Shown here piece by piece: positions 14,856-53,108 of a DNA stretch of 60,896 bases. The notes below the pieces were generated by a model. That model made no database searches. It saw nothing but the letters and a program-made list of their open reading frames with translations, and was not told the origin of the DNA. The stretch comes from Oscillibacter sp. (GTDB lineage: Bacteria; Bacillota; Clostridia; Oscillospirales; Oscillospiraceae): assembly GCA_014799925.1 (NCBI GenBank), contig JAAVHC010000043.1, positions 1-60,896 on the forward strand. Direction: 5' to 3'. The first letter of the stretch is position 1. Each line of letters starts with the position of its first letter. Made by a program: the position numbers and the translations under genes.

Positions 14856-14869
14856 GCACATAGAAAAAG

Positions 14870-33144: not shown

Positions 33145-33648
33145 GCCCTGCCGGGCGGGGCCTTCTTTTCCCTTGTGGGAAAAGAAGCAAAAGCACCCTC
33201 AAGGGGCCATACCCCCTTGAGAATCCCCTGAATTACGGGGAATATTGTTTTTGCGCCCGTCCTGTAGTCTGTCCGGACTGATGCAGAAATAGATCCGTGT
33301 ATGAGGCGAAGCCTCTGACCAAGGCCGTTTTCGGTAGTCCCTACCGTCCAGTACGCGGGAATCTCCCGAAAGGCACCCCGGGAGACTCCTCGTGTTATAA
33401 CGGTAGGGGCTTCCGATACACACACTAAAGCAGAAGCAGAAGAGGAACGAAGCGGACGGCACAACCGATAGACCAGCCAAAACGTGCCACGGGCGCAAAA
33501 AACAATAATTCCGTAATAAGGTGTCGCTTCCAGCGACGCCCTAAGGGGTCCAGGACCTTGGTCCTGGCACGCTTTTGGGTACTTTTCCCGTGGAGGAAAA
33601 GTACCCGCGGGGTCCGGGGCCGCGCAGGCCCCGGACCATCAAATAGAA
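33145..33648 (+). repeat. R2 element copy A, ~500-bp structured noncoding repeat
   Basis: This noncoding block matches 52595-53059 end to end, though at low identity. Conserved hairpins are TTCTTTTCCC/GGGAAAAGAA (33163-33186), CTCAAGGGG/CCCCTTGAG (33200-33223), CCAGGAC/GTCCTGG (33550-33567), GGGTACTTTTCC/GGAAAAGTACCC and GGTCCGGGGCC/GGCCCCGGACC. A long-range helix joins 33233-33261 to 33489-33519 (TATTGTTTTTGCGCCCGT with ACGGGCGCAAAAAACAATA). Strict blocks ACGGTAGGGGCT and AGCGGACGGCA lie inside. No open frame is shared with copy B. It lies between rny and the BceAB-like operon. Confidence 0.8.
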
Positions 33649-33692
33649 GCCGCCACCCTCCCATCCCGGCAGGGACGGATCTACCCCCCAAC

Positions 33693-33708
33693 CTTACACC
33701 AATGTAAG
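33693..33708 (+). promoter_or_regulatory. BceR-type operator upstream of the ABC transporter
   Basis: The sequence CTTACA-CCAA-TGTAAG is a perfect inverted repeat matching the TnACA-N4-TGTAA box bound by BceR-type response regulators. It lies about 55 bp upstream of a TATAAT at 33761-33766, the usual placement for an activator with a weak -35. A further half-site, TGTAAGG, occurs at about 33723. No BceRS-type pair is encoded next to this transporter. Confidence 0.65.
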
Positions 33709-33800
33709 TTTCCTCCCCATTTTGTAAGGTAAAACGATGGAACGCCGTCTTCTAATCCGTTATAATAATCCTGCAAACCAATCCAAGGAGGAAAAAGATC

Positions 33801-34556
33801 ATGCCGATTCTGCAAGTCAGCGACTTGAAAAAGATTTATACCACCCGCTTCGGGGGTCAGCAGGTCCAGGCCCTTGCCAGCGTCAACTTTGCCGTGGAGC
33901 CCGGAGAATATGTTGCCATCATGGGTGAGTCCGGCAGCGGCAAAACGACTCTATTGAACATCCTGGCCGCCCTGGACAAGCCCACCAGCGGCGAGGTCCT
34001 GCTGGACGGGAAGAACATCGTCACCATCAAGGAGCGGGACATCGCCGCCTTCCGGCGGGACCACCTGGGCTTTGTATTCCAGGACTTCAACCTCCTGGAC
34101 ACCTTCTCCATCCAGGACAACATCCTGCTGCCTCTGGTGCTGGCGGGAAAGACCTACCAGGAGATGGAGCGCCGTCTCCTGCCCCTGTCCCGGCGGCTGG
34201 GCATCGACGCCCTGCTGAAAAAGTACCCCTACGAGGTCTCCGGCGGGCAGAAGCAGCGGGTGGCCGTGGCCCGGGCCCTGATCACCGAGCCCCGCATCGT
34301 CCTGGCCGACGAACCTACCGGCGCGCTGGACAGCAAGGCCACCGACAGTCTGCTGAACCTCTTCAGTCAGGTGAACACCGAGGGCCAGACCATCCTCATG
34401 GTCACCCACTCCACCAAGGCCGCCAGCCACGCCAAGCGGGTCCTGTTCATCCGGGACGGCGAGGTGTTCCATCAGATTTACAAGGGCATCAGCTCCACCG
34501 AGGAGATGTACCAGAAGATTTCCGATACTCTGACTCTCCTGGCCTCCAAGTCCTAG
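33801..34556 (+). CDS. BceA-type ABC transporter ATP-binding protein
   Basis: This 251-residue ATPase has Walker A GESGSGKTT, Q-loop FVFQDFNLLDTFS (the FNLLDT sequence is typical of the BceA/peptide-7 exporter group), signature VSGGQKQR, Walker B IVLADEPTGALDS and switch His MVTHSTKAASHA. It pairs with the BceB-type permease 190 bp downstream. These transporters free lipid II-cycle intermediates from antimicrobial peptides such as bacitracin. AAGGAGG precedes the ATG. The BceR-like box upstream suggests induction by peptide stress. Confidence 0.92.
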   Translation: MPILQVSDLKKIYTTRFGGQQVQALASVNFAVEPGEYVAIMGESGSGKTTLLNILAALDKPTSGEVLLDGKNIVTIKERDIAAFRRDHLGFVFQDFNLLDTFSIQDNILLPLVLAGKTYQEMERRLLPLSRRLGIDALLKKYPYEVSGGQKQRVAVARALITEPRIVLADEPTGALDSKATDSLLNLFSQVNTEGQTILMVTHSTKAASHAKRVLFIRDGEVFHQIYKGISSTEEMYQKISDTLTLLASKS

Positions 34557-34557
34557 T

Positions 34558-34627
34558 CCTCGGCGGACGGCCAATGCGGGACTGCGCTGCGGTGGCCGAC
34601 CAGGTTCGCCGCCCGGTGACGAAAAAT
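34558..34627 (+). repeat. R4 intercistronic repeat, copy 1
   Basis: This 70-bp unit begins immediately after the BceA-type stop. It reads CGGCGGACGGCCAATGCGGG and ends GGTGACGAAAAAT. CGGCGGAC pairs with GTTCGCCG near its end (one wobble), and GGCCA with TGGCC inside, so it forms a cruciform-like hairpin in the transcript. Confidence 0.7.
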
Positions 34628-34653
34628 GTCTGCAATCAGAGCTGCCGGAGGTG

Positions 34654-34723
34654 CCTCGGCGGACGGCCAATGCGGGACTGCGCTGCGGTGGCTGACCAGG
34701 TCCGCTGCCCGGTGACGAAAAAT
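34654..34723 (+). repeat. R4 intercistronic repeat, copy 2
   Basis: This is a near-identical tandem copy of the previous unit, offset by 96 bp and differing at about four positions (GGCTGACC for GGCCGACC, GTCCGCTG for GTTCGCCG). It ends 24 bp before the BceB-type start. A third, diverged copy lies at 55081-55149 in the other ABC operon. Confidence 0.7.
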
Positions 34724-34747
34724 TTTGTAATGGAAGGATTTATTAGG

Positions 34748-36820
34748 ATGAAACCAAACGGAGGTCTTTTCCTCAAGCTGGCGGTGCAGAGCATCCGGAA
34801 CAACCGGAAATTCTACCTGCCCTATATCCTGGCTCTGCTGGGGGACGTTGCGGCTATTTACATCATGAACGCCCTGGCAAAGGACTCCGGCGTGGCAAAT
34901 ATGACCCCCGGACGGCCCAATGGATATATGTATGTAAACATGTTCATGAATCTCGGCATGGTCATTGCTTTCCTGTTTTCCGCTGTCTTTGTGCTGTATA
35001 TCAACGGCTTTCTCATGAAGCAGCGAAAAAAGGAACTGGGCATGTACAACATTCTGGGCATGGGGAAGCAGCACATTGCCATGGTGCTGGTGATTGAGAC
35101 GCTGCTTATTGGTGTGACCGGCATCGGTGGAGGGATCATCGCGGGAATCACTCTCCACAAGCTGATGACCCTGATCCTCCACAAGTTGATGGGGATGCCG
35201 GTGCCCTTCGGATTCTACATCTGCTGGGACGGCATGGCCCAGACGGCGGCTCTGTTCGCGATCCTGCTGGCGGTGACGCTGCTGGCGAACCTGAACAGGG
35301 TGCGGGTGTCAAAGCCCATCGAGCTGCTGCGCGGCGGTAATGTGGGCGAGCGGGAACCCAAAACCCGGTGGCTCATGACCCTGCTGGGCATTGTGACCTT
35401 GGGGGCCGGGTACTATATTGCCGTAAAAACCCAAACCGGCGTGGAAGCCGTCATGATGTACTTTGTGGCGGTGTTCCTGGTCATCGCCGGAACGTACTGC
35501 CTTTTTACCGCCGTGAGCATCTTTATTCTGAAGGCTCTGCGGAAGAACAAGAAGTTTTACTATAAAACCGGCCATTTCATCGGCGTTTCCGGGATGCTCT
35601 ACCGCATGAAGCAGAACGCCGTGGGCCTTGCCAACATCTGCATCCTGTGTACCATGGTGATGGTCATGCTCTCCGGTACGCTGTCGCTGTACCTGGGCAC
35701 GGCGGACATGGTCCGGGAGCAGTATCCGGGGGACATCAATATCACCGTGCAGTATCTCCCCCAGGCCCGCGGGGGCGGGGAGGACTGGGCCCCCTTTCTT
35801 CCCGACGCTATGCTGGCGGCCCAGACGGGCTTCATTGAGGGTCAGGGCGTATCCATCAGCGGCGTGCGCACCTGCTCCGACTTCGGCTTCGGCGCGGGGC
35901 GGCTGGCGGACGGCAGCTATACCACCGAGCGGTTCGCCGAGGGCACTGTGGGCTCCATTGTCGCCATCACCTGTATGACGGAGGCGGACTACACCGCCAA
36001 GACCGGCGAGGCGCTGCATCTTAGGCCCGGCGAGGTGGCCGCCTACGGCGTGGATGCGCCGGAGCTGACCATCCACTGGGTCGTCCCCGACGAGAGCCGG
36101 GAGCTGGAGGAGACCACTTACCCGATCGTCCGGAAGCTGAGGGACAACCCGGATTACAGCCCCGACATCGCCCAGCTGGTCACCGTCGTGGTACGGGACG
36201 AGGCGGCCATTCGCGAGCTCTGGATAAAGCAGGCCGCGGCCTACGGTGAGGACGCCAGCATGATGCAATGGTACGCCTACCTGAACGTGGACTGTGACGA
36301 GGATACGCTCCGCCAGCTGGAGGACCGCTACTGGGACGCGTCGGCGGACGACGCCTTCTTTGACGGCACCGGCAAATGGCAGCGCTGCTCCTGGACGCTG
36401 CGCTGCGACGGCGCGGAGGACGCCTACGGTCTGGCGGGGGGCTTCCTGTTCCTGGGGCTGTTTCTGGGATTTGTCTTCCTGCTGGCCACGGTGCTGATTA
36501 TCTACTACAAGCAGATTTCCGAGGGCTACGAGGACAAGGACCGGTTCGAGATCATGCAGAAGGTGGGCCTGAGCCACGGCGAGGTCAAGAGGTCCATTCA
36601 CAGCCAGATCCTGATGGTGTTCTTCCTGCCCATCGTGGTAGCGAGCATCCATATTGTCTTTGACTTCAACATGGTGGAAAAGCTGTTGACCCTGTTCTAT
36701 ATTCACAATACCACTATGACCGCCCTGTGTACCCTGGGCACGGTGCTGGTGTTCTTCGCGGCCTACGGCGCGGTGTATCTGCTGACGGCCCGCACATATT
36801 ACAAAATTGTAGAGAGGTGA
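34748..36820 (+). CDS. BceB-type ABC transporter permease
   Basis: The protein has 690 residues. The start opens MKPNGGLFLKLAVQSIRNNR, with GAAGGA about 9 bases upstream; the frame reading back through the R4 repeats is not credible coding. Topology fits BceB: ten membrane segments, with the first at about 22-42, a cluster through residue ~300, a large extracellular domain of ~200 residues between segments 7 and 8 (about 320-560, rich in Asp/Glu), and three C-terminal segments (AGGFLFLGLFLGFVFLLATV and two more). The extracellular domain would bind the peptide-lipid complex. It is a transporter for peptide-antibiotic resistance and sensing, with its ATPase upstream. Confidence 0.9.
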   Translation: MKPNGGLFLKLAVQSIRNNRKFYLPYILALLGDVAAIYIMNALAKDSGVANMTPGRPNGYMYVNMFMNLGMVIAFLFSAVFVLYINGFLMKQRKKELGMYNILGMGKQHIAMVLVIETLLIGVTGIGGGIIAGITLHKLMTLILHKLMGMPVPFGFYICWDGMAQTAALFAILLAVTLLANLNRVRVSKPIELLRGGNVGEREPKTRWLMTLLGIVTLGAGYYIAVKTQTGVEAVMMYFVAVFLVIAGTYCLFTAVSIFILKALRKNKKFYYKTGHFIGVSGMLYRMKQNAVGLANICILCTMVMVMLSGTLSLYLGTADMVREQYPGDINITVQYLPQARGGGEDWAPFLPDAMLAAQTGFIEGQGVSISGVRTCSDFGFGAGRLADGSYTTERFAEGTVGSIVAITCMTEADYTAKTGEALHLRPGEVAAYGVDAPELTIHWVVPDESRELEETTYPIVRKLRDNPDYSPDIAQLVTVVVRDEAAIRELWIKQAAAYGEDASMMQWYAYLNVDCDEDTLRQLEDRYWDASADDAFFDGTGKWQRCSWTLRCDGAEDAYGLAGGFLFLGLFLGFVFLLATVLIIYYKQISEGYEDKDRFEIMQKVGLSHGEVKRSIHSQILMVFFLPIVVASIHIVFDFNMVEKLLTLFYIHNTTMTALCTLGTVLVFFAAYGAVYLLTARTYYKIVER

Positions 36821-36851
36821 CCTCCGGGTCTGCCCGGAAAGGAGCGAAAAA

Positions 36852-37085
36852 ATGGACCGAGTCGATACCGCCCTGATGCTGGCCATGCTCTGCCTGATGG
36901 CGGGAACGCTGCTGGTGGGCTTCAGCCGCCCGCTGTGGTGGATGCTCCACCAGCGGGGTCCGGACGGACAGAGGCACGCGCCGCGCCACTACGAGTGGCT
37001 GCTGCGGATTCCCGGCATCTGCCTGCTGGCCGCGGCCGCCTGCGTCATCGGCATGAGCGTCATGGGAGTGTTCCCGTTTCAATAA
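36852..37085 (+). CDS. Small membrane protein of the BceAB operon
   Basis: The protein has 77 residues with two membrane segments (about 8-27 and 52-74) separated by a basic cytoplasmic or external loop (HQRGPDGQRHAPRHYEW). AAAGGAG lies 6 bases ahead of the ATG and the gene starts 31 bp after the permease, before the operon terminator. I recognise no family. A small accessory subunit of the transporter is possible. Confidence 0.7.
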   Translation: MDRVDTALMLAMLCLMAGTLLVGFSRPLWWMLHQRGPDGQRHAPRHYEWLLRIPGICLLAAAACVIGMSVMGVFPFQ

Positions 37086-37111
37086 GACTTTTTCCCTTGA
37101 GAACTTGCATA

Positions 37112-37149
37112 AAACTGCGGTCCGCCGGATGGCGGGCCGCAGTTTTTTT
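37112..37149 (+). terminator. Terminator of the BceAB-type operon
   Basis: ACTGCGGTCCGCC and GGCGGGCCGCAGT pair over 13 bp with loop GGAT (one wobble), followed by seven T. Confidence 0.9.
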
Positions 37150-37194
37150 GAATGAATCGCCCCGGAGAAAAAATCCCCAGACAGTTTTGCGCGT

Positions 37195-37320
37195 TTTATA
37201 CTATTCCTCGATTAAAAGTGCAATATCGTTACCGTGTGGAAATTCAAAAATTGCAATGCATTGGGGAGCGAAAGTAAAGTTCTTTTTGATACTTTTTCTT
37301 TCAAGAAAAAGTATTACAAA
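37195..37320 (+). repeat. R1 repeat copy 3
   Basis: This ~115-bp element is near-identical to the reverse complement of 16483-16600. It ends in a TACTTTTTCTT/AAGAAAAAGTA hairpin that lies against the stop codon of the SDR gene on the minus strand. That placement resembles a terminator, but with A/T-only pairing. Confidence 0.75.
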
Positions 37321-38048
37321 ATGAATCCTCCGTCCACGGTCAGCACCTGTCCGGTAATGAAATCCGCGTCCTCCCGCGCCAGAAAGGCTACGGCTTTCGC
37401 CACGTCCTCCGGCCTCCCCAGCCGTCCGGCAGGGGTCTGGTCCATCAGGGAGGCCAAGGTTTCCTCTCCCAGGCCGGATACCATGTCGGTGGCGATGACC
37501 CCCGGCGCGACGCAGTTGACCCGGATATGGGAGGGGGCCAGCTCCATGGCCAGGGACCGGGTCAGTCCGATGACGGCCGCCTTGGACGCGGCGTAGGCGA
37601 CCTCGCAGGCCGCGCCCCGCAGTCCCCAGATGGAGGAAATGTTCACGATGCACCCCGCCTTCTCGTGGAGCATATGGGGCAGCACCGCCCGGATCGTATG
37701 GAAGTCCCCGTCGGCGTGAACAGCGAACATCCGCCGCCACAGCTCCTCCGGGGTGTCCTGAAACAGGTCATTCTGGGCGATGCCGGCGTTGTTGACCAGC
37801 AGGTCCACGGGGCCGAAGGCCGCCTCCGTCTCGCGGATGGCGGCGGTGATGGCCTCCCGGTCCGATACGTCGGCCCGGACCGCCAGCGCCGCCCCGCCCC
37901 GCTCCCGGATCTCCGCGGCCAAAGTCTCCGCCTGTCGTTCCGCCTTCAGATAGTTCACGCCCACGGCGTAGCCCTCCGAGGCGAGCTCCCGGACGATGGC
38001 CCGTCCGATTCCCCGGCTGCCGCCGGTGACAAAGGCTGTTTTTTTCAC
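37314..38048 (-). CDS. SDR-family oxidoreductase, FabG-like
   Basis: This 244-residue NAD(P)-dependent short-chain dehydrogenase has the cofactor motif TGGSRGIGRA (8-17) and NNAGIA near 87. The catalytic set is Ser (NISSIWG near 138), Tyr and Lys (YAASKAAV near 152-156), and the PGVIATDM loop follows. It is close to 3-oxoacyl-ACP reductases in length and motif, but it is not in a fatty-acid cluster: it follows an MFS transporter by 3 bp. The substrate is therefore open. Its stop codon touches the R1 repeat. Confidence 0.88.
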   Translation of the reverse strand: MKKTAFVTGGSRGIGRAIVRELASEGYAVGVNYLKAERQAETLAAEIRERGGAALAVRADVSDREAITAAIRETEAAFGPVDLLVNNAGIAQNDLFQDTPEELWRRMFAVHADGDFHTIRAVLPHMLHEKAGCIVNISSIWGLRGAACEVAYAASKAAVIGLTRSLAMELAPSHIRVNCVAPGVIATDMVSGLGEETLASLMDQTPAGRLGRPEDVAKAVAFLAREDADFITGQVLTVDGGFIL

Positions 38049-38051
38049 AGA

Positions 38052-39344
38052 TCATTCCTCCTCCAGGCTCCAGATCCGCCGGTCCCGCCGGAAAATCAGG
38101 CAGACCAGCACTCCCGCGGCCGCGATGAACAGGAACAGCAGCGCAGCGCCGCTTCCCTTCCCGCCGCCAAGCAGCCGGACCAGCGGGGATTCCGCCGCCA
38201 GACCGGCCATGTAAGGCTCGCAGACCTCGTCTACCAGCCAGCCGCCCAGCAGATAGCCCACCGGGATGGTAAAAAATTGCAGGGTATTCCGGGCGGCGTA
38301 CACCCGGCCCTGCAGCTCCACCGGAATATACAGACGCATCAGCGCGCCCAGATTGGCATTCATGATGGGAATGCACAGCCAGCCCAGAACGGCCCCGACG
38401 TACCACACGCCCGCGTGACGGCCCAGGGCCAGCAGGAGATTCTCCGTGCTCATGGAGAGCAGCAGGCTGTTGCAGATGACCCGTACCCGGCTTTTTGGCT
38501 CCGGCAGGAGCGTTGCCAGCAGGCTCCCCGCCAGATTGGCCAGCCCTGTCACCGTCTCCAGCACACCCAGCACCGTTTCCCCGCCGCCGGAGCGGGAGAG
38601 GATCATGGCCGGCAGAGCCGCGTTGTAGATGCTGGCAATCAGGTTGATCGCGGCCAGAAAGAGAATCAGGTCCAATATGCCCCGGTTTTCCACCAGCCAA
38701 ACCATACTCTCCCGAGCGGCCTGTATAAGGGACTCCCGTTTCTCCGGCGCAGGCGACTCCGGGATACGTACACAGAATGCCAGAGTCAGCACCGCGATGG
38801 CGCAGGTGGCCAGATCAAAGACGATCACCGCTTCCAGCTCCAGCAGGGTCAGCACAGCCGTGGCGAATACCGGCGACAGCAGGCTTACCAGAGAACCGGA
38901 GAAGGACAGCAGGCCGGACACCCGCTGGACCTGGTCCCTGGGGGTCAGCAGGGTCACTACAACCTCGCTGACCGGGTATTGAATGGTGTTCATGAGCCCG
39001 TTCAGGGCGTTGAGTGCGTAGAGATGCCAGATCTCCAGCCGTCCCGTCCGCAGCAGGAGCAGCACCGCCAGCGTGGTCAGAGCGGCGAAGACGTCGCACA
39101 GGACCATCGTCCTGCGTTTGTCCCACCGGTCCCCCAGGCTTCCGGCAAAGATGCTCAGGAGCACATAGGGGGCATAGGAACACACACTCAGCAGCGCCGT
39201 GGTCAGGGCGGAGCCCTGCTGCTGGTAGGACCAGATGACCAGCGCGAAGCTGGTCATGGCGCTGCCCAGGCTGGAGAGGTTCTGGGTGCTCCAGACGATA
39301 AAAAAGCTTTTTAATCCCGTAAAATCAAATCTATTGTTTTTCAT
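38052..39344 (-). CDS. MFS efflux transporter
   Basis: This 430-residue protein has about 12 membrane segments. MFS motif A is clear (GSLGDRWDKRRTMVL near 60-75) and the sequence is closest in style to the macrolide/enterobactin efflux group (MefA/EntS). The start MKNNRFDFTGL is chosen because GAGGAG lies 7-8 bases upstream; a longer frame begins inside a leader hairpin. It is probably co-transcribed with the SDR gene 3 bp downstream. A possible leader-peptide attenuator lies 100-140 bp upstream, consistent with drug-inducible expression. Confidence 0.87.
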   Translation of the reverse strand: MKNNRFDFTGLKSFFIVWSTQNLSSLGSAMTSFALVIWSYQQQGSALTTALLSVCSYAPYVLLSIFAGSLGDRWDKRRTMVLCDVFAALTTLAVLLLLRTGRLEIWHLYALNALNGLMNTIQYPVSEVVVTLLTPRDQVQRVSGLLSFSGSLVSLLSPVFATAVLTLLELEAVIVFDLATCAIAVLTLAFCVRIPESPAPEKRESLIQAARESMVWLVENRGILDLILFLAAINLIASIYNAALPAMILSRSGGGETVLGVLETVTGLANLAGSLLATLLPEPKSRVRVICNSLLLSMSTENLLLALGRHAGVWYVGAVLGWLCIPIMNANLGALMRLYIPVELQGRVYAARNTLQFFTIPVGYLLGGWLVDEVCEPYMAGLAAESPLVRLLGGGKGSGAALLFLFIAAAGVLVCLIFRRDRRIWSLEEE

Positions 39345-39420
39345 AACAGACTCCTCATTTTTATTTTCCCAATAAAAACGCAGAGCCTGTCCGAACTTCA
39401 TTACTTTATCTTCCGTATTC

Positions 39421-39482
39421 AGCTCCATGCTGTCCCGTTCGGATCAGACCCTGCATGGAGCTTTGGCAAGGCAGAGACGCAT
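39421..39482 (-). promoter_or_regulatory. Possible leader peptide and hairpin attenuator of the MFS gene
   Basis: On the minus strand AAAGGAGGT stands 6 bases before an ATG at 39482 that opens a 12-codon frame, MRLCLAKAPCRV, stop at 39444. Codons 8-10 form one arm of a perfect 10-bp stem (AGCTCCATGC 39453-39462 with GCATGGAGCT 39421-39430); the other arm holds an ATG in frame with the MFS gene. This geometry matches ribosome-stalling attenuators of macrolide resistance genes. Function is inferred only. Confidence 0.45.
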
Positions 39483-39587
39483 CGTTGACCTCCTTTCTAT
39501 CCGGCCGCCGGAGGCGGCGGGATTGCTTTTTCATCCCGAAGCGTCTGTTTCAGGATGTTGTCGGCAGCCCCTGCCGCTATAAGGCGT

Positions 39588-41441: not shown

Positions 41442-41497
41442 GGTTCATCCTCCGAAGACTGTTTTTTCGATTCTCCGATGAAAAGTCATCCCGGCAT

Positions 41498-42247
41498 CTA
41501 CTCCCGTATCAGAAAGAGCAGGAGCATATGCGCCGGATAAAAGGCGTAGCAAAAATATTGAAACCTTTTGCTGTGGATGCCCCGCCGCCCCTGATAGAGC
41601 CAGATGGGGAGCAGCGCCAGCAGCGCGAAGCCCTGCTGAACAATTTCCAGCTCATGGCCGAACAGCTGGACGGCGTAGTAATAGCCCCCCAGCAGCCGCA
41701 CATGCAGGATATACAGGCATACCAGCTGGAGCAGGCGCTTTTTCCAGCTCTGCCCCCGAAAGAAATAGAACGTCAGCACGGTCAGAACGCCCGCGCCGTA
41801 ATAGTCCGCCATGACGGCGTACCCCAGAACAAATCCCAGCAGGACAAGTCCCGCCTGCAGGAACGCCGCCGCCGTGGGCCGAAAGCGTTCCCTGCATCGT
41901 TCCATCAGGGCGATCACTCCCAGGCTCAGGAGGAAGGTCCAGAGTACGTTCTGATGATAGGGGTAGAATATGGAACCGCCGCACATCAGGTCGAAGGGGA
42001 TCTCCGACAGCACCGCCCAGAACAGGAGGCGCCGCATATACCGGCGCAGATTGCTGGTATGGGCATAGCCCTCCGCGACCAGGAACGCGAAAATGGGGTA
42101 CGCCATCCGCCCCACGCACGTCAGCCATTCCGCCGAGGGAAAAAGCATGGCCCACAAATGGTCGCACAGCATCAGCCCCATGGCCAGGATATGGAGGCTG
42201 GAGGAACTGATGTCCTTCCTGATTTCCAGACGCACCGTCATACTCAC
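41498..42247 (-). CDS. TraX-family membrane protein
   Basis: This 249-residue protein has about seven membrane segments. It opens with the TraX pattern SSSLHILAMGLMLCDHLWAML, followed by GRMAYPIFAFLVAEGYAHTSN, a conserved signature of the family. TraX acetylates F-pilin in E. coli; in Firmicutes the substrate is unknown, and acyl transfer to an envelope component is the usual guess. It overlaps the stop of the amidohydrolase gene by ATGA and is followed 56 bp later by uvrC. Confidence 0.85.
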   Translation of the reverse strand: MSMTVRLEIRKDISSSSLHILAMGLMLCDHLWAMLFPSAEWLTCVGRMAYPIFAFLVAEGYAHTSNLRRYMRRLLFWAVLSEIPFDLMCGGSIFYPYHQNVLWTFLLSLGVIALMERCRERFRPTAAAFLQAGLVLLGFVLGYAVMADYYGAGVLTVLTFYFFRGQSWKKRLLQLVCLYILHVRLLGGYYYAVQLFGHELEIVQQGFALLALLPIWLYQGRRGIHSKRFQYFCYAFYPAHMLLLFLIRE

Positions 42248-43074: not shown

Positions 43075-43105
43075 ATAGTCCTCCGCATCTTGGGCAAAAT
43101 TAAGC

Positions 43106-43139
43106 AGAAAAAGACTGCTTCGTTACCGAAACAGTCTTT
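43106..43139 (-). terminator. Terminator of the HPr gene
   Basis: AAAGACTG and CAGTCTTT pair (43110-43117 with 43132-43139), with extra TTCG/CGAA pairing in the loop, and T residues follow on the minus strand. It ends 21 bp past the HPr stop. Confidence 0.85.
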
Positions 43140-43160
43140 CACCCGCTGTGTATAACGTCT

Positions 43161-46140: not shown

Positions 46141-46233
46141 AATTTTTTCTCCAAATTGGGCCTGTCATTTGTTGGCCGTCGTTTTCGCATAATAAAATGG
46201 TCGCTTCACCGTCCTGCGTTCCCATTCATTCAA

Positions 46234-47040
46234 TCATCCCTCTGCCCCCTGAATTTGAAGCCCCTTATAAAAATCCAGCGTCCCGAACCCTCTTTCCAGC
46301 GTGGCGTGGACGTAGGCCTCACTGGCGTCCCCCAGCCGTTTCAGATCCTCCGCCGCCAGAGAGAAGCTGTAAAGCCGCTTTGCCTCCCCGTAGAGCACAT
46401 GCCGCAGCGCAGCCAGAGCTCCGGAAGACAAGGGCATGGACAGACCGCGGGCAGACCAGCGGTCTGCCGGACCAGCCGCTGCCGCCCGCGGCGGTCCACC
46501 GCATTTCCCGCAGCAGACCACGCCCTCCCGCAGGTCCAGCATCGGATTCTCCGGCTCCGGACTGCCGCAGCAGGCGCAGGCGTCCGCCAGGGGCTCAAAG
46601 CCGGTGAGACTCATCAGCTTCAGCTCGAAGGCCGCCTTTACCAGCGCCTGGGGCTTCTTCAGCGTCCCCAGGGCGTACAGAGCGTTGAGCAGCAGAGACA
46701 GCACCTCCCCGCTCTCCGTATCCTCCAGCGCCACCGCCTCCGTCAGCTCCGCGAAGTAACTGGCCAGGCTCAGCAGCCCGACGTCCCTCCGTACCCCGTC
46801 AAACAGCTCGATGGTGTTCCCCTCGCTGAGATACTGCCACCCGCGGCTCTCGCTGAGGGTAAACTCGGCATAGACCAGCAGCTGGGTGCAGGCGGTGACC
46901 CGGCTTTTCCGGCTCCTGGCCCCTTTCGCCACCACCGGCAGCTTCCCGCCGGGGGTCAGGATGGTCAATATCCTGTCGCTTTCCTTGGTGTCCACCGCCC
47001 GCAGGACGATGCCCTTTACCACGGTCCGTTCTCTTGCCAT
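46234..47040 (-). CDS. recO: DNA repair protein RecO
   Basis: This 268-residue protein helps load RecA in RecFOR repair. The N-terminal OB fold begins TVVKGIVLRAVDTKESDRILTI, and a four-Cys zinc site lies near 147-172 (CACCGSP ... CCGKCG). The start MARERTVVKG is chosen because AGAGGA lies 8 bases upstream; the longer frame adds an unlikely 23 residues. The gene has its usual place after era, although two foreign genes intervene. A 9-bp inverted repeat lies just upstream. Confidence 0.93.
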   Translation of the reverse strand: MARERTVVKGIVLRAVDTKESDRILTILTPGGKLPVVAKGARSRKSRVTACTQLLVYAEFTLSESRGWQYLSEGNTIELFDGVRRDVGLLSLASYFAELTEAVALEDTESGEVLSLLLNALYALGTLKKPQALVKAAFELKLMSLTGFEPLADACACCGSPEPENPMLDLREGVVCCGKCGGPPRAAAAGPADRWSARGLSMPLSSGALAALRHVLYGEAKRLYSFSLAAEDLKRLGDASEAYVHATLERGFGTLDFYKGLQIQGAEG

Positions 47041-47365
47041 ATCGCGTCCTCTTATGTACGACACACGATCTGTGTGTCGTTTTGCTTTGGTCTGTTCCGC
47101 AATTTGCATGCGGGGACGTCACCCATCCGCCTCGGGCGGCTGAACGACCGTCCCCCCGCCTGTCTCGTCCCGCGGGGCGTGACGGGCGCGCAGATAAAAC
47201 TCAGGCCGTCCGGTACTCCAGAACAGGCCCCAATATCCATCCTCCATCGCTTCCATCCTCCCGCCTTATGGTGGGCAGAAGCAGAAGCGGGTATACGTGG
47301 TAAGATTTGTGGTGGTGGGCAGAATTCGGACGCGGGGGCGAGCCGTGCCCGCCGCTCTGCCGCGC
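47041..47365. other. Intergenic region upstream of recO with a palindrome
   Basis: ACGACACAC (47058-47066) and GTGTGTCGT (47072-47080) form a perfect 9-bp inverted repeat directly upstream of the recO ribosome site on the minus strand. It could be a transcript hairpin or an operator. No gene, promoter or terminator is clear in the remaining 280 bp. Confidence 0.4.
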
Positions 47366-47890
47366 TTACGGCCGGATTTCCTCCAGGATCGGGTCCAGAT
47401 ATTTCGGATCGGTCCAGTCGCATGTTTCCTCCCCGGCTTCCATCAGGGCCCTTTCCCAGGGCTCGTATTCGGAAGGCGGCTTCTTTGCCGTCGCCCTGCG
47501 CAGCATCTTACACAGATTCCGGTCAATCGCGTTCATTGCCGCCATATCCCACGCGCCCCGGCAATAGAAGCAGGGGACGGCGGACAGCTTTCCCGTCATG
47601 TTGTGCTCCACGATCTCCCGAAACGCCCTTTCCTCATAGGGCGACGCTCCGGCGCAGAACACGATGAGCTTCTTTCCCGCCAGGGCCTCCAGGTGCTTTT
47701 TCAGGAACGACAGGCCCGCGATCCCCGACGCGTAGATCCCGCCGCCGAGAATAACTGCGTCATATTTTTGAACGTCCGCTATCTTCGCCTTTTTTGTCTC
47801 GATATACGGGAAGCCGGTTCTTTCCGACAGCCATTGCGCGTATTTCCTGGTCGCTCCATATTTGGACTGATAGAGAATGATTCCGTTCAT
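47366..47890 (-). CDS. Flavodoxin-domain protein
   Basis: The protein has 174 residues. MNGIILYQSKYGATRKYAQWL carries the flavodoxin phosphate loop, YDAVILGGGIYASGIAG the second flavin-binding segment, and KLIVFCAGASPYEERAF the third. The family includes HemG-like protoporphyrinogen oxidases and unassigned flavodoxin-like redox proteins. The start is set at 47890 because GGGAAAGG lies upstream; a longer form is possible. It is inserted, with the GNAT gene, between era and recO. Confidence 0.82.
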   Translation of the reverse strand: MNGIILYQSKYGATRKYAQWLSERTGFPYIETKKAKIADVQKYDAVILGGGIYASGIAGLSFLKKHLEALAGKKLIVFCAGASPYEERAFREIVEHNMTGKLSAVPCFYCRGAWDMAAMNAIDRNLCKMLRRATAKKPPSEYEPWERALMEAGEETCDWTDPKYLDPILEEIRP

Positions 47891-47915
47891 ACCGTTTCCC
47901 TTTCCCATCACGGCC

Positions 47916-48464
47916 TCAAAGCTTCTTCACCATAAACAGAAAATCCGCGTAACTCCCGTCCCGGTACTTGAAGGCGCGGGGGATGGTCCCCGTGACCTCG
48001 AAGCCCAGCTTCTGGTACAGCCCCACCGCCGGGGCGTTGGTGGAAACCACGTCCAGCTCCGCCTGCTCATATCCGGCGGACCTGGCGCCGGCCAGAATCT
48101 CGCTCATCAGCGCCGTCCCGACGCCCATGCCCCAGGACTCCCGGTACAGGGATATCCCCACATTGCACCGATGCCGCATCCGGACCCGCTCCGACTTGGG
48201 GGCAAAGGAGCAGCTTCCCGCGAACACGCCGTCCACAAACGCAAGCAGGTGCAGGGCGCGGGGATCCTCCCGGTTTCTCCGGATAAACTCCACTTCTTCC
48301 TCCACGCTGGTCCGGACCTCCTCCGGCTCCCGGATCATGTAGGGCGTCTCGGCGGAGGTGGCCTTCAGATAGTCCAGCAGCATCTCCGCGTCGCCTTCCT
48401 CCGCAAGGCGGAGGAGGTAGGTCCTGCCGTTTTTCAGCAGGACCATCTTTTCCCGATCATTCAT
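47916..48464 (-). CDS. GNAT-family N-acetyltransferase
   Basis: The protein has 182 residues with a GNAT fold. The acetyl-CoA loop region is NVGISLYRESWGMGVGTALM (Q/R-x-x-G-x-G/A-like, near 118-135), followed by ELDVVSTNAPAVGLYQKLGFEVTG, the typical strand 5 and alpha 4. It is similar to ribosomal-protein or small-molecule acetyltransferases; the substrate is unknown. It lies 20 bp after era and 25 bp before the flavodoxin gene. Confidence 0.85.
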   Translation of the reverse strand: MNDREKMVLLKNGRTYLLRLAEEGDAEMLLDYLKATSAETPYMIREPEEVRTSVEEEVEFIRRNREDPRALHLLAFVDGVFAGSCSFAPKSERVRMRHRCNVGISLYRESWGMGVGTALMSEILAGARSAGYEQAELDVVSTNAPAVGLYQKLGFEVTGTIPRAFKYRDGSYADFLFMVKKL

Positions 48465-48484
48465 TGTATTTTCAGTCTCTTTCT

Positions 48485-49381
48485 CTACTGTTCGTCATAC
48501 CCGAAGGAGCGGATATAGTTGATGTTATCCCGCCAGTTCTCCTTTACCTTCACCCAGGTTTCCATATAAACCCTGGTTCCCATAAACCGCTCGATGTCTT
48601 CCCGTGCGTGGGAGGCGATTTTTTTCAGCATGGCTCCGTTTTTGCCGATGATGATGCCCTTGTGGCTGGCTTTCTCACAGTAGATGGTCACATCCAGGTC
48701 AATCATCCCGTTATCTCTTTCCGAGAACTTCGTCACCTCGATGGCCGTTCCGTGGGGAACTTCCTTGTCCAGGTTCCGCAGCAGCTTCTCCCGGACGATC
48801 TCCGCCACCACCTGCCGCTCCGGCTGGTCGGAGGTTTCCCCATCGGGAAACAGCTGGGGGCCCTCCACAGCATACCTGGACAGCTGCTCCATCAGTTCCT
48901 CCAGTCCGTCCTTTTCCTGGGCGGAGACGGGGATGATGGCGTCGAACTGGTGGACCTTGCTGTAGACCGCCATGACCTCCAGCAGCTGGGCCTTCTCCAC
49001 GGTGTCGATCTTGTTGATGACCAGCACGGCGGGCAGGCGCTCCTCCTCAATGCGGTCGATGAGGGCCCGCTCCGGGGTCCCCACATTGGCGATGGGCTCC
49101 ACCATCAGGCACACCCCGTCCACGTCCGCCACGGACTGCCTGACCACGTTCACCATGTAGTCCCCCAGCCGGGTCCGGGCCTTGTGGAAGCCGGGCGTGT
49201 CCATGAGGACGAACTGGGTGTCCCCCCGGTTCACCACGCCGCAGATGCGGTTGCGGGTGGTCTGGGGCTTGGGGGAGACGATGGCGATCTTCTCGCCCAC
49301 CAGGGCGTTGGTCAGGGTGGACTTGCCCACGTTGGGCCGGCCCGCGATGGTAATCATCGCTGTTTTCTTGATGTCGTTCAT
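48485..49381 (-). CDS. era: GTPase Era
   Basis: This 298-residue ribosome-assembly GTPase acts on the 30S subunit. P-loop GRPNVGKST is at 13-21, the switch I Thr is in PKPQTTRNRI, G3 is DTPGFHKA and G4 is NKID near 126. The KH domain at the C-terminus reads IIIGKNGAMLKKIASHARED and binds the 3' end of 16S rRNA. It follows ybeY by 128 bp in the conserved cluster. Confidence 0.97.
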   Translation of the reverse strand: MNDIKKTAMITIAGRPNVGKSTLTNALVGEKIAIVSPKPQTTRNRICGVVNRGDTQFVLMDTPGFHKARTRLGDYMVNVVRQSVADVDGVCLMVEPIANVGTPERALIDRIEEERLPAVLVINKIDTVEKAQLLEVMAVYSKVHQFDAIIPVSAQEKDGLEELMEQLSRYAVEGPQLFPDGETSDQPERQVVAEIVREKLLRNLDKEVPHGTAIEVTKFSERDNGMIDLDVTIYCEKASHKGIIIGKNGAMLKKIASHAREDIERFMGTRVYMETWVKVKENWRDNINYIRSFGYDEQ

Positions 49382-49509
49382 TCAGGTAATCCTCAACTTT
49401 CTTATTTTTCCGGCATTGAGCGATTCTGCCGGGATTATTGCTGCCGCTGCCCGCGGCAAAGGCGTGCCGGAACCAATGGTTCTGGACTCCTTCGCAGTAC
49501 GCGGAAGTT

Positions 49510-50001
49510 CTACCGTTCCAGTCCCAGCTCCGCCATAACGGCGTCCTCTCTAGCCCGCATCCGCGCCTTTTGCGGTCCCTCGTCCAGATGGTCGTAGCCC
49601 AGCAGATGCAGTACCGAATGCACCGCCAGATACGCCAGCTCCCGCCGGCTGGAGTGCCCGTACTCCCTGGCCTGGGCCTGGACCCGCTCCAGGGAGATCA
49701 CCATGTCCCCCAGAGGCACCAGCCCCGTGGCCGGGTCCGCGTCCTCCCCGCCGGGAAGCTCCCCCGGCGTCAGCTCGAAGGCCGGGAAGCTCAGCACGTC
49801 CGTGGGCCTGTCCACGCCCCGCTGCTCAAGATTGATCTGATGGATGGTCTCATCATTGGTCACGGACACGTCCACCTCGCAGGGGAAATCCACCCCCTCC
49901 AGCCCCAGGGCGGTCCGGATGGCCTTGCGGATGAGGGCGCGTTTCCTCTCATCCACCCCCGGCACGTCCGCCGTCACGGGGATATAATGCCGCTTCGCCA
50001 T
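49510..50001 (-). CDS. ybeY: Endoribonuclease YbeY
   Basis: This 163-residue rRNA maturation and quality-control nuclease has the zinc site HSVLHLLGYDH (H-x3-H-x5-H) near 122-132, preceded by DVLSFP and GDMVIS blocks typical of the family. It starts 3 bp after the phoH stop and is translated from a ribosome site inside phoH. The family length is normal. Confidence 0.96.
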   Translation of the reverse strand: MAKRHYIPVTADVPGVDERKRALIRKAIRTALGLEGVDFPCEVDVSVTNDETIHQINLEQRGVDRPTDVLSFPAFELTPGELPGGEDADPATGLVPLGDMVISLERVQAQAREYGHSSRRELAYLAVHSVLHLLGYDHLDEGPQKARMRAREDAVMAELGLER

Positions 50002-50004
50002 GTT

Positions 50005-50976
50005 CTATCTCTTCTTTCCTTTATTGCTGTTATTGTAGTAATCGTCATAAGCCTTGATGATCCGCTGGACCATCACATGGCGCACCACGTCCTGGTCCGT
50101 CAGCTCGCGGATGCCGATGCCCTCCACATTCTTCAGCACCCGCACGGCCTCCTTCAGTCCGGAGGTCTTGTCCGCCGGAAGGTCGATCTGGGTCACGTCG
50201 CCGGTGATGACCACCTTGGACCCGAAGCCCATGCGGGTGAGGAACATCTTCATCTGCTCCCGGCTGGTGTTCTGGGCCTCGTCCAGGATGATGAAGCTGT
50301 CGTCCAGCGTCCGCCCGCGCATATAGGCCAGGGGGGCCACCTCGATGTTCCCCCGCTCCAGATACTTCTGGTACGTCTCCGCCCCCAGCATGTCAAAGAG
50401 GGCGTCGTACAGGGGCCGCAGGTAGGGGTCCACCTTGCTCTGCAAATCCCCCGGCAGGAACCCCAGCCGCTCCCCCGCCTCCACGGCTGGCCGGGTGAGG
50501 ATGATGCGGTTGACCTGCTTGTCCCGGAAAGCCGCCACGGCGGCGGCTACCGCCAGGTACGTCTTGCCCGTACCGGCGGGGCCAACGCCGATGGTGACGG
50601 TATTTTTCTGCACCGACTCGATATATTTCTTCTGCCCGATGGTCTTGGCCTTCACGGGCCGGCCCTTGGAGGTGATGCAGATGACGTCCGCCGTCAGCTC
50701 GGCGGCCTTGTCGGCCTGGCCGGAGCGGGCCAGGCCGATGACGTACCGCACGGTCTGCTGTCCGATGTTCTCCCCGCGGCTGGCCAGGGTCAGCAGGGCG
50801 TGGATGGCCTTGGAAGCCAGCATGGTGTCCTCCGGCTCCCCGGCGATGCGCAGCTCGCCCTCCCGGTTGGTGACCACCACGTGAAATTCCGACTCAATGA
50901 GCCGGATGTTCTCGTCGAAGGAGCCGAAAATGCTGGCGGCCTCCTCCAGACGCTCAATTTCTATCCTTTGTTCCAT
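50005..50976 (-). CDS. phoH: PhoH-family ATPase
   Basis: The protein has 323 residues. Walker A is GPAGTGKTYLA near 133, Walker B is FIILDEAQNTS near 225, and the PhoH signature LTRPAVEAGERLGFLPGDL follows the P-loop. It is an RNA-linked NTPase encoded beside ybeY in most Firmicutes. CAGGAG lies ahead of the ATG. Confidence 0.95.
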   Translation of the reverse strand: MEQRIEIERLEEAASIFGSFDENIRLIESEFHVVVTNREGELRIAGEPEDTMLASKAIHALLTLASRGENIGQQTVRYVIGLARSGQADKAAELTADVICITSKGRPVKAKTIGQKKYIESVQKNTVTIGVGPAGTGKTYLAVAAAVAAFRDKQVNRIILTRPAVEAGERLGFLPGDLQSKVDPYLRPLYDALFDMLGAETYQKYLERGNIEVAPLAYMRGRTLDDSFIILDEAQNTSREQMKMFLTRMGFGSKVVITGDVTQIDLPADKTSGLKEAVRVLKNVEGIGIRELTDQDVVRHVMVQRIIKAYDDYYNNSNKGKKR

Positions 50977-51100
50977 TGAAAATGTCTCCTGTATCGCAAT
51001 TTTTATATCATTTATACCATCCCGCCCGGGCGAGCACTCAACAACCAGGGACCGTCATTGGGCCGCGCCCATCGGCCGGTCCCGGCAGCGGCGCCGCGCG

Positions 51101-52285
51101 TCACTGCCCCGGCGCGTCCACAAACCGCCCGATCTGCTCCTCGCACTCCGCCGCCAGCGTCACCACCAGATATCCGTCCACGGCCTCGCTGGTGACCTCC
51201 CGGCTGAGGATCGTCCCCTCGTCCAGATACCCCGCCAGGCGCGCGTCCAGAACCTCCTCCGCCAGGGCCAGGGCCTCCCGCTCGCTCCTCTGCCGCTCGG
51301 TCAGCTCGTAGGGCCGCAGTGTCTCCGTCACCACGGTCAGCGGAGTTGCCACGCCGCCTGGCAGCTCACACTTGTTCCAATTTATTATTTTATCACAAGT
51401 ATCCCCCGAAATGCTACTGCTAAAATAGAGATTCCACCGTTTTTTTCCAATCAGAAGGGCGTGCCGCTGGTTTTCCTTCCCGGTGTAGGTCTTTTCCCAC
51501 GCGGTCAGGGGCACCCGGCACTGAAGCTGATACCAGGTCCGCCCATAGACCTTCCCCATTCCCCGCAGGTACCGCACGCCGGTGACGTTGTCCTGCACCA
51601 CGCCGGAGATGAGCAGCTGCCCCTCCTTCACCGTGGTTCCCGGCAGCGCCATTTTCTCCCCGTCCCAGGGCTGAATGGCGGTGATCAGCGCGTCCTTGGC
51701 GGCCACGGTGTTCCCCGGCTCCCGCTTGCTGACGATCTCCGGCGGGAGGACGCGCTCCCGCACCTGGACATAGGCCCGGCAGCCCCTTATGTTGACGGCG
51801 ATATAGCTCAGCTCTGGAATCTCCAGGAGGATATAGTTTCTCAATTCCGATGAATCCACATCGAAGCCGTAGGTCCCGAAGCCCACGCCGCATTTGTCCA
51901 GCGCCCGCAGGATCTCCTGCTGAGAGACCTGCTCGTTTCCCTCTATTTTGAAATCCCAGATAAAAAAGGAGCCCCAGAATACCAGCGCCGCGCAGATCCC
52001 CAGCGTGACCCACAGGCCATACCGGCGGCGCATCCGGCCCAGGAAGAAGGGCGCGCCCTTCCAGCGCAGGACGGTCATGTCGCAGTCGATTTTCCTGCTC
52101 AGCCGCCGGAGCCGTTTCCAGTCCCGCCGGGTCATGGTGAAGGTAAATTCTACCGGCGAAGCCCAGTTCAGATCCCAGAAGAGGATCCCATATTCCGCGC
52201 AGATGTTCAGCACCCGCTCCGGAAACCCGCTCTCCACCCGTCCGGTTACCTCGCCCTTGACCAGATTTACCAGATGCTTCAGCAT
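51101..52285 (-). CDS. yqfD: Sporulation protein YqfD
   Basis: This 394-residue sporulation-linked membrane protein has a cytoplasmic N-terminus with the RILNICAEYGI-type segment, a membrane helix (YGLWVTLGICAALVFWGSFF near 92-112) and a large extracytoplasmic part beginning IEGNEQVSQQEILRAL, reminiscent of POTRA-like regions. It is expressed in the mother cell with YqfC in Bacillus. It follows yqfC by 1 bp. The bases 50977-51100 after its stop hold nothing clear. Confidence 0.92.
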   Translation of the reverse strand: MLKHLVNLVKGEVTGRVESGFPERVLNICAEYGILFWDLNWASPVEFTFTMTRRDWKRLRRLSRKIDCDMTVLRWKGAPFFLGRMRRRYGLWVTLGICAALVFWGSFFIWDFKIEGNEQVSQQEILRALDKCGVGFGTYGFDVDSSELRNYILLEIPELSYIAVNIRGCRAYVQVRERVLPPEIVSKREPGNTVAAKDALITAIQPWDGEKMALPGTTVKEGQLLISGVVQDNVTGVRYLRGMGKVYGRTWYQLQCRVPLTAWEKTYTGKENQRHALLIGKKRWNLYFSSSISGDTCDKIINWNKCELPGGVATPLTVVTETLRPYELTERQRSEREALALAEEVLDARLAGYLDEGTILSREVTSEAVDGYLVVTLAAECEEQIGRFVDAPGQ

Positions 52286-52286
52286 G

Positions 52287-52571
52287 TTATTTCACCCACT
52301 CCACACGCGAGATGGTTCCCTTGATCCGCAGCTGATCCCCCGTCATGCTCATCAGCTCCAGCTTTTCCCCATAGATCCTTATGATGCAGCCTTCCCCGTT
52401 GATGTCGATTTCCTCCCCGCTGTAGGAGAGGATTCCCTTGTGCCGCTCCATGTAAAAATGGGTGCTGCCCACGACCTCGATGTGCGGGAGCCCCGCCACC
52501 AGATCGGCCGGCAGGTCGAACAGCTCCGCCGCGCCGTCCAATACGCGTATTTCTTTTTTGAAAAGTTCCAT
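52287..52571 (-). CDS. yqfC: Sporulation protein YqfC
   Basis: The protein has 94 residues. PHIEVVGSTHFYMERHKGIL and IRIYGEKLELMSMTGDQLRIKG are the conserved YqfC/YabP-type pattern. It is the first gene of the yqfC-yqfD-phoH-ybeY-era run. GGAGGG lies 5 bases before the ATG. No sigma-E-type promoter could be called with confidence. Confidence 0.92.
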   Translation of the reverse strand: MELFKKEIRVLDGAAELFDLPADLVAGLPHIEVVGSTHFYMERHKGILSYSGEEIDINGEGCIIRIYGEKLELMSMTGDQLRIKGTISRVEWVK

Positions 52572-52594
52572 TGTTGCCCTCCAGAGGTTTCCTT

Positions 52595-53059
52595 GCCCTT
52601 GCCGGGCGGGGTTTACTTTTCCCTTGTGGGAAAAGTAACAAAAGCACCCTCAAGGGGTCGAGACCCCTTGAGAATCCCCAAATGTTTTGATTTGTTTACG
52701 CTGCGACCTGGGGTCCGCCTGTCCTGCGGGGTTCCATGGGCCGTCAGCAGGCGAAGCACCGGCGGATGCGCGCTATCGGAAGACAGAGGGGCTAAGCCGT
52801 TTCTTAACCACCGCCGGGAGTTCCCAAAGCAATACGGTAGGGGCTACCGATGACCACACTGAAATAGACGCAGAAGATGCGCAAAGCGGACGGCAGTACA
52901 GCAGACAAAACCAGACTGTGCCACGGCGCAAAACAAATAGCCCCCGTAATCATAAGGGAATCCAAAACCGTATGGTTTTGGTGGCTTTTTGCCTACTTTT
53001 TGTCCACACAAAAAGTAGGCGCCCGTCCGGGGCGCGCAGCCCCGGCCTATCGAATAGAA
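52595..53059 (+). repeat. R2 element copy B, ~465-bp structured noncoding repeat
   Basis: This is the second, diverged copy of the element at 33145-33648. Its stems are TACTTTTCCC/GGGAAAAGTA, CTCAAGGGG/CCCCTTGAG, CCAAAACC/GGTTTTGG (52962-52981), GCCTACTTTTTGT/ACAAAAAGTAGGC and GTCCGGGGC/GCCCCGG. The long-range helix pairs 52690-52703 with 52924-52938 (ATTTGTTT with AAACAAAT, then CGCTG with CGGCG). ACGGTAGGGGCT and AGCGGACGGCA are kept. It lies between the divergent yqfC and GntR genes. Confidence 0.8.
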
Positions 53060-53108
53060 ATCATCTTCTATCCTACTCTATGCACCATAAAATTTTTTTA
53101 GAAACCCC

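What the first reader, a model, noticed from the sequence alone, without database searches (positions are those of the whole stretch)
33145..53059. R2: two diverged copies of a ~500-bp noncoding element with covarying stems
The copies (33145-33648 and 52595-53059) differ at many positions, yet keep the same stems through compensatory change. The first stem swaps a T-A pair for an A-T pair (TTCTTTTCCC to TACTTTTCCC). CCAGGAC/GTCCTGG becomes CCAAAACC/GGTTTTGG. GGGTACTTTTCC becomes GCCTACTTTTTGT, and both arms change together. A long-range helix is kept while its sequence changes (TATTGTTTTTGCGCCCGT in A, ATTTGTTTACGCTG in B). Unpaired blocks ACGGTAGGGGCT and AGCGGACGGCA are strictly kept. No shared open frame exists. 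This pattern argues for a structured RNA, or a DNA-hairpin mobile element, that I cannot name. Both copies lie just upstream of ABC transporter operons, which may be chance.
Basis: partly seen in the sequence, partly recalled or inferred. Interest (0 to 1): 0.82.

Follow-up and report, generated by a model that had tools for sequence, protein, structure and literature searches.

The report
Mobile DNA with folded triple-strand ends
The two copies belong to a family of roughly half-kilobase mobile DNA elements, present dozens of times in this bacterial genome, whose two ends look built to fold into a knotted three-stranded hairpin, a kind of DNA end that I have not found described.

Summary
The window genome holds 144 matches to the element's end module, giving 59 inward-facing pairs, 54 of them spanning 364-534 bp. 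Both ends carry the same module, inverted: a hairpin, an A-rich strand, bases that pair back into the hairpin loop, and a second hairpin. Covariation exceeds a tree-simulated null in the first hairpin and the loop pseudoknot at both ends, and in the second hairpin at the right end. The A-rich strand mirrors the hairpin's purine arm in base and mostly in length, the signature of an intrastrand triplex. At site B, 15 of 18 relatives with both flanks on one contig have an interval too short for the element. Some ~1 kb versions carry a Cro/CI-type regulator and DUF6809, with no transposase recognised. The module recurs in Bacteroidota. No Rfam family matched the element. Best reading: non-autonomous mobile DNA whose folded ends are recognised by an unidentified enzyme acting in trans. 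Nearest known: E. coli BoxC/PIT intrastrand-triplex repeats. RNA function is not excluded.

The parts
33145..33648 (+). copy A of the element (outer limits approximate)
   Evidence: profile match 33145-33649 (L001 1506-2010)
33162..33187 (+). copy A left hairpin b: CTTCTTTTCCC/GGGAAAAGAAG, loop TTGT
   Evidence: sequence; family counts
33188..33196 (+). copy A left third strand CAAAAG (33188-33193) and CAC (33194-33196), which can pair with GTG 33175-33177 of loop b (its last base also closes stem b)
   Evidence: sequence; family statistics
33199..33220 (+). copy A left hairpin c: TCAAGGGG/CCCCTTGA
   Evidence: sequence; family counts
33243..33260 (+). copy A long-range helix, 5' strand (pairs with 33489-33507); part of the inverted-repeat halves
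33489..33507 (+). copy A long-range helix, 3' strand
33550..33567 (-). copy A right hairpin c': CCAGGACC/GGTCCTGG
33568..33606 (-). copy A right mirror module: CACG 33568-33571 pairs with CGTG 33589-33592; third strand CTTTTG 33572-33577; stem b' GGGTACTTTTCC/GGAAAAGTACCC
52595..53059 (+). copy B of the element (limits approximate; it sits between GAGGTTTC at 52584-52591 and CTCTATGCACC at 53076-53086)
52608..52680 (+). copy B left end module (hairpin b, third strand, pseudoknot, hairpin c)
52954..53023 (-). copy B right end module, inverted

Best explanation
It is a non-autonomous mobile DNA element, like a MITE in size, copy number and inverted symmetry. Its two ends carry the same module facing inward. 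In single-stranded form the module can fold into a hairpin whose purine arm is covered by a third strand and whose loop pairs with the bases just beyond (a triplex pseudoknot). I infer that an enzyme encoded elsewhere recognises these folded ends when they become single-stranded (replication, transcription or cruciform extrusion) and moves the element; the enzyme is unidentified. Most of the paired copies have the gene-free size. A minority carry small genes in the middle, most often a Cro/CI-type regulator plus DUF6809, which look like cargo. Shown: copy number, end architecture, covariation, third-strand rule, presence/absence at site B. Inferred: that folding is what is recognised, that single-stranded DNA rather than RNA is the working form, that the site-B difference is an insertion rather than repeated loss, and mobilisation in trans.
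For: 144 end-module matches and 59 inward pairs in one genome. Covariation above a tree-simulated null, including the pseudoknot at both ends. Loop-linker complementarity of 4 or more bases in 126 of 176 unique combinations, against 13% on average (maximum 19%) in 200 reshufflings of partners. Third strand mirrors the stem: inner base A gives A in 92 of 94, C gives A in 23 of 25, G gives G in 72 of 73 unique modules; stem run 4 plus G gives AAAAG in 85 of 87, run 5 plus G gives AAAAAG in 7 of 10, run 6 plus G in 1 of 1. In L236 one of three tandem copies has a sixth T, a sixth A and a sixth third-strand A. Site B occupied in G000 and G008; intervals of 29-280 bp in 15 of 18 relatives with both flanks on one contig, six of these read and without element. 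Non-Watson-Crick pairs: 73 of 2964 raw in unique stems, 31 interior, against 18 G.U of 222 stem pairs in ten tRNAs from the fetched loci.
Against: No transposase was recognised between the end pairs that I read (by eye, and by Pfam on 25 proteins); the long versions carry regulator, DUF6809 and other small genes, and element-rich G066 and G042 lack DUF6809. No target-site duplication or exact end could be fixed. The short interval in G018 has a small hairpin of its own. Site A is shared with G018, so some copies are old. The few interior non-Watson-Crick pairs favour the outward strand (A.C 23, G.T 8 read inward, p=0.011; 13 to 3, p=0.021, with the stricter neighbour rule), as an RNA made outward would, although related copies are not independent. 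The modules counted were gathered with a model that rewards pairing, so low wobble leans that way. In one search two of five measures do not exceed the shuffles (pairs with a change on both sides: reached by 44 of 500; further pair types: by 489 of 500). With C inside, the length rule is looser (five A in 83, six in 36, four in 8, seven in 2 of 129).
Confidence: 0.6

Rival explanations
1. A structured RNA element: transcripts reading outward through either end form a major-groove U.A-U triple-helix pseudoknot (as in telomerase RNA or ENE elements, recalled) that protects or processes 3' ends, for instance of the divergent regulator and DUF6809 genes.
For: On the outward strand the order stem-1 strand, U-rich loop, stem-2 arm, loop, stem-2 arm is an H-type pseudoknot with a U-rich first loop; C stands where the stem has a G-C pair (complement of the rule); outward G.U exceeds A.C 23 to 8; the regulator/DUF6809 pairs read are transcribed outward toward both ends.
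Against: 54 of 59 paired copies have the gene-free size; wobble pairs are rare on either strand compared with ten tRNAs, with the caveat that the search model rewards pairing; hairpin c outside the triplex is also mostly Watson-Crick; no Rfam match over the element, and the six weak matches all lie outside it.
Confidence: 0.22
2. Inert palindromes: repeat copies whose arms are kept complementary by templated repair of quasi-palindromes and by conversion between copies, with no selected fold.
For: Mostly strict Watson-Crick pairing with few wobble intermediates; module types may be exchanged between the two ends, so the third-strand rule may rest on fewer independent changes than the counts suggest.
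Against: The third-strand rule is a mirror identity, not a complement, and would not come from hairpin-templated repair; the pseudoknot crosses the hairpin; the same architecture occurs in Bacteroidota.
Confidence: 0.1
3. REPIN-like elements moved by a RAYT (Y1 transposase).
For: Hairpins in inverted pairs, high copy number, intergenic.
Against: No Y1_Tnp (PF01797) match in the window genome (assembly 97.86% complete); units are about ten times longer than REPs.
Confidence: 0.05

Closest known systems
BoxC / PIT / TMECO intrastrand-triplex repeats (E. coli and other proteobacteria; PMC4666352: outline, text parts 2-4 of 10, section 16, section 20 part 1 of 2 read)
   Same: Same order of pyrimidine arm, purine arm, third purine strand at the 3' end (class II), dispersed; in E. 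coli MG1655 five of 18 sites are inverted pairs, by its Table 1 four facing inward and one outward; one inward pair read here lies between hrpB and mrcB. The paper assigns no function.
   Different: Those are G/C-rich 9-base triplexes in units of 34-37 bases; here the core is A/T-rich with about 5 triads, adds a conserved loop pseudoknot, and caps elements of about 0.5 kb with inverted halves and occasional genes.
MITEs (miniature inverted-repeat transposable elements; recalled)
   Same: Short, high copy, long inverted repeats, mostly gene-free, presence/absence difference at one site tested.
   Different: No parent transposon found; ends show covarying nested hairpins and a triplex rule instead of a fixed terminal sequence.
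REPINs with RAYT transposases (recalled; PMC3116915 seen in a search listing only)
   Same: Inverted pairs of hairpins spread in intergenic DNA.
   Different: No Y1 transposase match in the genome; different size and motif.
Telomerase-type U.A-U triple-helix pseudoknot (recalled)
   Same: Strand order and third-strand pairing logic on the outward strand.
   Different: No RNA shown; here both ends of a DNA element carry it in mirror orientation.

Membership tests
MITE | short gene-free unit in high copy number | tested here: met
   59 pairs, 54 of 364-534 bp; no shared frame in 40 copies
MITE | terminal inverted repeats | tested here: met
   right module is the reverse complement of the left in architecture
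MITE | insertion polymorphism | tested here: met
   site B only; repeated loss not excluded
MITE | target-site duplication | tested here: inconclusive
   outer ends not resolvable
MITE | a parent transposon with the same ends and a transposase | tested here: inconclusive
BoxC/PIT class II intrastrand triplex | third purine strand mirrors the purine arm | tested here: met
BoxC/PIT class II intrastrand triplex | TMECO consensus CCCTCNCCC...GGGNGAGGG...GGGNGAGGG | tested here: not met
   module sequence differs
BoxC/PIT class II intrastrand triplex | triplex forms in solution | not testable with these tools
   needs CD or NMR
REPIN/RAYT | Y1_Tnp transposase in the genome | tested here: not met
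   no match at E <= 0.001
any Rfam family | match over the element at gathering score | tested here: not met
   Searches (window; seven loci): the only matches are two riboswitches outside the element; (E <= 5, four loci): six weak matches, all outside it
triple-helix pseudoknot RNA | transcribed RNA | not testable with these tools
   no expression data

The most novel reading that the evidence does not exclude
A previously undescribed superfamily of mobile DNA, shared by Oscillospiraceae-type Clostridia and Bacteroidota, whose ends are recognised not by sequence but as a folded triple-strand pseudoknot by an unknown trans-acting enzyme, with E. coli BoxC pairs as shrunken relatives.
Probability: 0.35. 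Interest if true: 0.88.

Novelty: new variant of a known kind. Interest (0 to 1): 0.7.

Why it matters
The paper that I read on intrastrand-triplex repeats such as BoxC assigns them no function. This family gives comparative evidence that a triplex-like fold plus a pseudoknot is kept by selection, places it at both ends of an element that differs in presence between related genomes, and extends it to another phylum. It turns an old question (what are these triplex repeats for) into a testable one: find the protein that binds the folded end.

Tried and rejected
Rfam at gathering score on the window and on seven loci, and at E up to 5 on four loci: no family over the element. RAYT/Y1 transposase in the window genome: none. 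Coding interior: no shared frame. Autonomous copy: the five long pairs in G000 and six intervals in G017 were read. Four of the six, 1.00-1.07 kb, carry the regulator/DUF6809 pair; the 2.9 and 3.8 kb intervals hold host genes by eye, the former also a 1.0 kb gene-bearing element. Longer G017 intervals (6-36 kb) and four short G017 loci that I fetched (L352-L355) were not read. DUF6809 as the mobiliser: disfavoured, because it occurs in 97 of 197 genomes of the order but in neither G066 nor G042, which are rich in elements. Plasmid and phage records, one copy as query: no match. IMG/VR exact patterns: none. Empty site at A: in most relatives the two flanks matched different contigs or distant places; G018 keeps both together, with an element (part of it reads N). 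Exact ends and target duplication: not resolved. Paper searches (listings with titles and starts of abstracts) showed no description of this element; only open-licence PMC papers are held, and one paper was opened.

Limits. The covariation test is my own script, not R-scape, with 25 simulated alignments. The module alignments used hold the best 150 of 225, 270 and 223 matches; 394 of 450 rows were kept after dropping overlapping, mostly antisense, rows. In one search, 356 of the 394 could be parsed, 192 unique. For A1 I left copy L007 out of both ends (39 of 40 left and 38 of 39 right modules of suitable length used). Model E-values are rough, and many of the 42 of 197 genomes (own genome counted) have one weak match; 13 have ten or more (at most 24 scored per genome). 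The loci were chosen by a pattern that fixes the hairpin and the A-run (not the pseudoknot), and its control is a plain base shuffle. The tRNA control is ten genes.
Full report
What was checked. Copies A (33145-33648) and B (52595-53059) are as described. A DNA search of the window's own genome (G000, 2.97 Mb, 84 contigs) with copy A gives 77 matches and with copy B 63. Profile searches over the fetched loci give 58, then 60, distinct places, 40 of them 430-620 bp long. No Rfam family matches the element at gathering score; an E<=5 search of four loci gave six weak matches, all outside it.

Architecture. The 40-copy alignment shows hairpin b (TACTTTTCCC/GGGAAAAGTA type), a CAAAAG-type strand, a short linker, hairpin c and GAATCCC at the left; the right end is the same module reversed and complemented. 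39 left and 38 right modules align together (A1; copy L007 left out). In A1 the three pseudoknot pairs between loop b and the linker form standard pairs in 86% of cells, each with changes on both sides. The whole structure scores 0.523 for covariation against 0.189 in shuffles and at most 0.131 when slid; two other measures do not stand out (pairs with a change on both sides 14 against 12.2; further pair types 32 against 34.8). A covariance model of stems b and c (R1) finds 144 matches in G000 (at least five are antisense overlaps), forming 59 inward pairs: 54 span 364-534 bp and five span 963-2116 bp; 26 matches stay single.

Covariation. With a FastTree tree and 25 alignments simulated column by column, 19 column pairs reach an expected count of 0.2 or less. 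Of these, 13 are in the proposed helices (hairpin b at both ends, right hairpin c', and the pseudoknots at both ends), 4 are off-by-one neighbours of b' pairs, and 2 (283-287, 386-391) are unexplained; left hairpin c and the outer hairpins give none. Over modules from many genomes, loop and linker share at least 4 complementary bases in 126 of 176 unique combinations; reshuffled partners give 13% on average, 19% at most in 200 trials.

Third strand. The A-rich strand after the hairpin mirrors the purine arm. In 192 unique modules (356 of 394 parsed) the base at the fifth position is A when the arm has A (92 of 94), A when it has C (23 of 25), G when it has G (72 of 73). In G000 alone, left ends are G/G (37 of 39, 2 not parsed) and right ends are A/A 22, C/A 8, G/G 5 (3 of 38 not parsed). 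Lengths match too: stem run 4 followed by G gives four A and G in 85 of 87; run 5 and G, 7 of 10; run 6 and G, 1 of 1. With C inside the rule is looser: run 5 gives five A in 83, six in 36, four in 8 and seven in 2 of 129; run 4 gives five A in 27 and four in 7 of 34; run 6 gives six in 2 of 2. In L236 (Taibaiella) one of three tandem copies has six T, six A and six third-strand A where its siblings have five of each. Mirror identity with A.A-T and G.G-C is the rule of class II intrastrand triplexes such as BoxC/PIT (PMC4666352: outline, parts 2-4 of 10, section 16, section 20 part 1 of 2 read). Read on the other strand, the same rule is U.A-U and C.G-C, as in triple-helix pseudoknot RNAs (recalled). 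How many independent changes lie behind these counts was not worked out.

Which strand, DNA or RNA. In 147 unique b stems and 115 unique c stems, 73 of 2964 pairs are G.T or A.C, partly outer-extension artefacts. Restricted to interior positions with at least two Watson-Crick pairs among the three neighbours on each side, reading inward, A.C is 23 and G.T 8 (binomial p=0.011); requiring three gives 13 and 3 (p=0.021); neither is corrected for relatedness. So the outward-reading strand seems to tolerate wobble better. Ten tRNAs in the fetched loci have 18 G.U in 222 stem pairs and no A.C. Low wobble argues for DNA, but the modules were gathered with a pairing-rewarding model; the asymmetry argues mildly for a working outward strand. 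The data do not settle it.

Mobility. The site-B search covered 24 relatives of the genus besides G000. 18 have both flanks on one contig: 15 have intervals of 29-280 bp, G008 has 609 bp with an element in the same orientation, and G002 and G022 have 1071 bp that I did not read. Sequence was read for G018, G017, G023, G001, G015, G006 (no element) and G008 (element); three more were fetched and only compared by BLAST. G018 shares GAGGTTTC at the left edge but has a small hairpin of its own in its 29 bp, perhaps a scar. Insertion in the G000/G008 line is the simplest reading; repeated loss is not excluded. At site A, G018 carries an element too, so some copies predate species. Ends and target duplication were not resolved.

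Cargo. The five long pairs in G000 enclose a Cro/CI-type regulator with a DUF6809 gene (L157) or one below the DUF6809 cut-off (L155), a Cro/CI-type regulator with a small ORF without Pfam match (L156), small ORFs without Pfam match, two of which look like ribbon-helix-helix proteins by eye (L154), and a sigma-70-type factor with a sub-cut-off DUF4179 match (L153). All four pairs of 1.00-1.07 kb in the (capped) G017 list carry a Cro/CI-type regulator and a DUF6809 protein, one of the latter just under the Pfam cut-off. No transposase was recognised. DUF6809 occurs in 97 of 197 genomes of the order but not in G066 or G042, so I read it as cargo.

Distribution. BLAST with one copy matches 22 of 24 same-genus relatives and, of the other relatives searched, one: G042. 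R1 matches 42 of 197 genomes of the order, own genome counted; 13 have ten or more matches. An exact pattern scan of named genomes stopped at 113 stretches, with Oscillospiraceae and other Clostridia, and Bacteroidota (Mucilaginibacter, Sphingobacterium, Chryseobacterium, Taibaiella, Cardinium) among them. In 24 of 26 mainly Bacteroidota loci taken from that scan the hairpin, third-strand and pseudoknot descriptor fired at least once (31 times in all, a few of them antisense or elsewhere), and 0 times in shuffled sequences, with up to 7 pseudoknot bases. The ~800 bp form of G066 and G085 has extra GC-rich hairpins outside the modules. No hits in plasmids, phages or IMG/VR patterns.

Context. 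In 34 copies classified with a simple codon-usage gene caller, flanking genes are ++ 14, -- 11, divergent 8, convergent 1; 6 more of the 40 were at edges. Gene functions were not compared, so the suggested link to ABC operons remains untested.

Judgement. A mobile, non-autonomous DNA element with triplex-pseudoknot ends, moved in trans by an unknown enzyme (0.6). The RNA rival stands at 0.22.

Noticed in passing
window 14858-14956 (+): Purine riboswitch (RF00167, 63 bits) in the window.
   Followed up: no
L153 545-2660 (G000:C7:102844-104959): A pair of end modules 2116 bp apart encloses a sigma-70-type factor gene and a gene with a sub-cut-off DUF4179 match, as if host genes had been captured or bracketed.
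   Followed up: partly
L236 1850-2326 (Taibaiella): Three tandem copies of a ~195 bp unit each containing the hairpin module, one with all three strands lengthened by one base.
   Followed up: partly
L157 (G000:C9:34021-35064) and G023:C526 4484-5569: Two right halves of the element form the two ends of one unit, a composite form; in L157 genes lie between, in G023 the middle was not read.
   Followed up: no
40 G000 copies: Only 1 of 34 classified copies lies between convergent genes; the gene caller is crude.
   Followed up: no
L244, L263, L274, L296, L302 (Cardinium): The module recurs on several contigs of this endosymbiont, some of them near contig ends.
   Followed up: no
L202 2627-2691: Fluoride riboswitch near the Mucilaginibacter element, outside it.
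   Followed up: no
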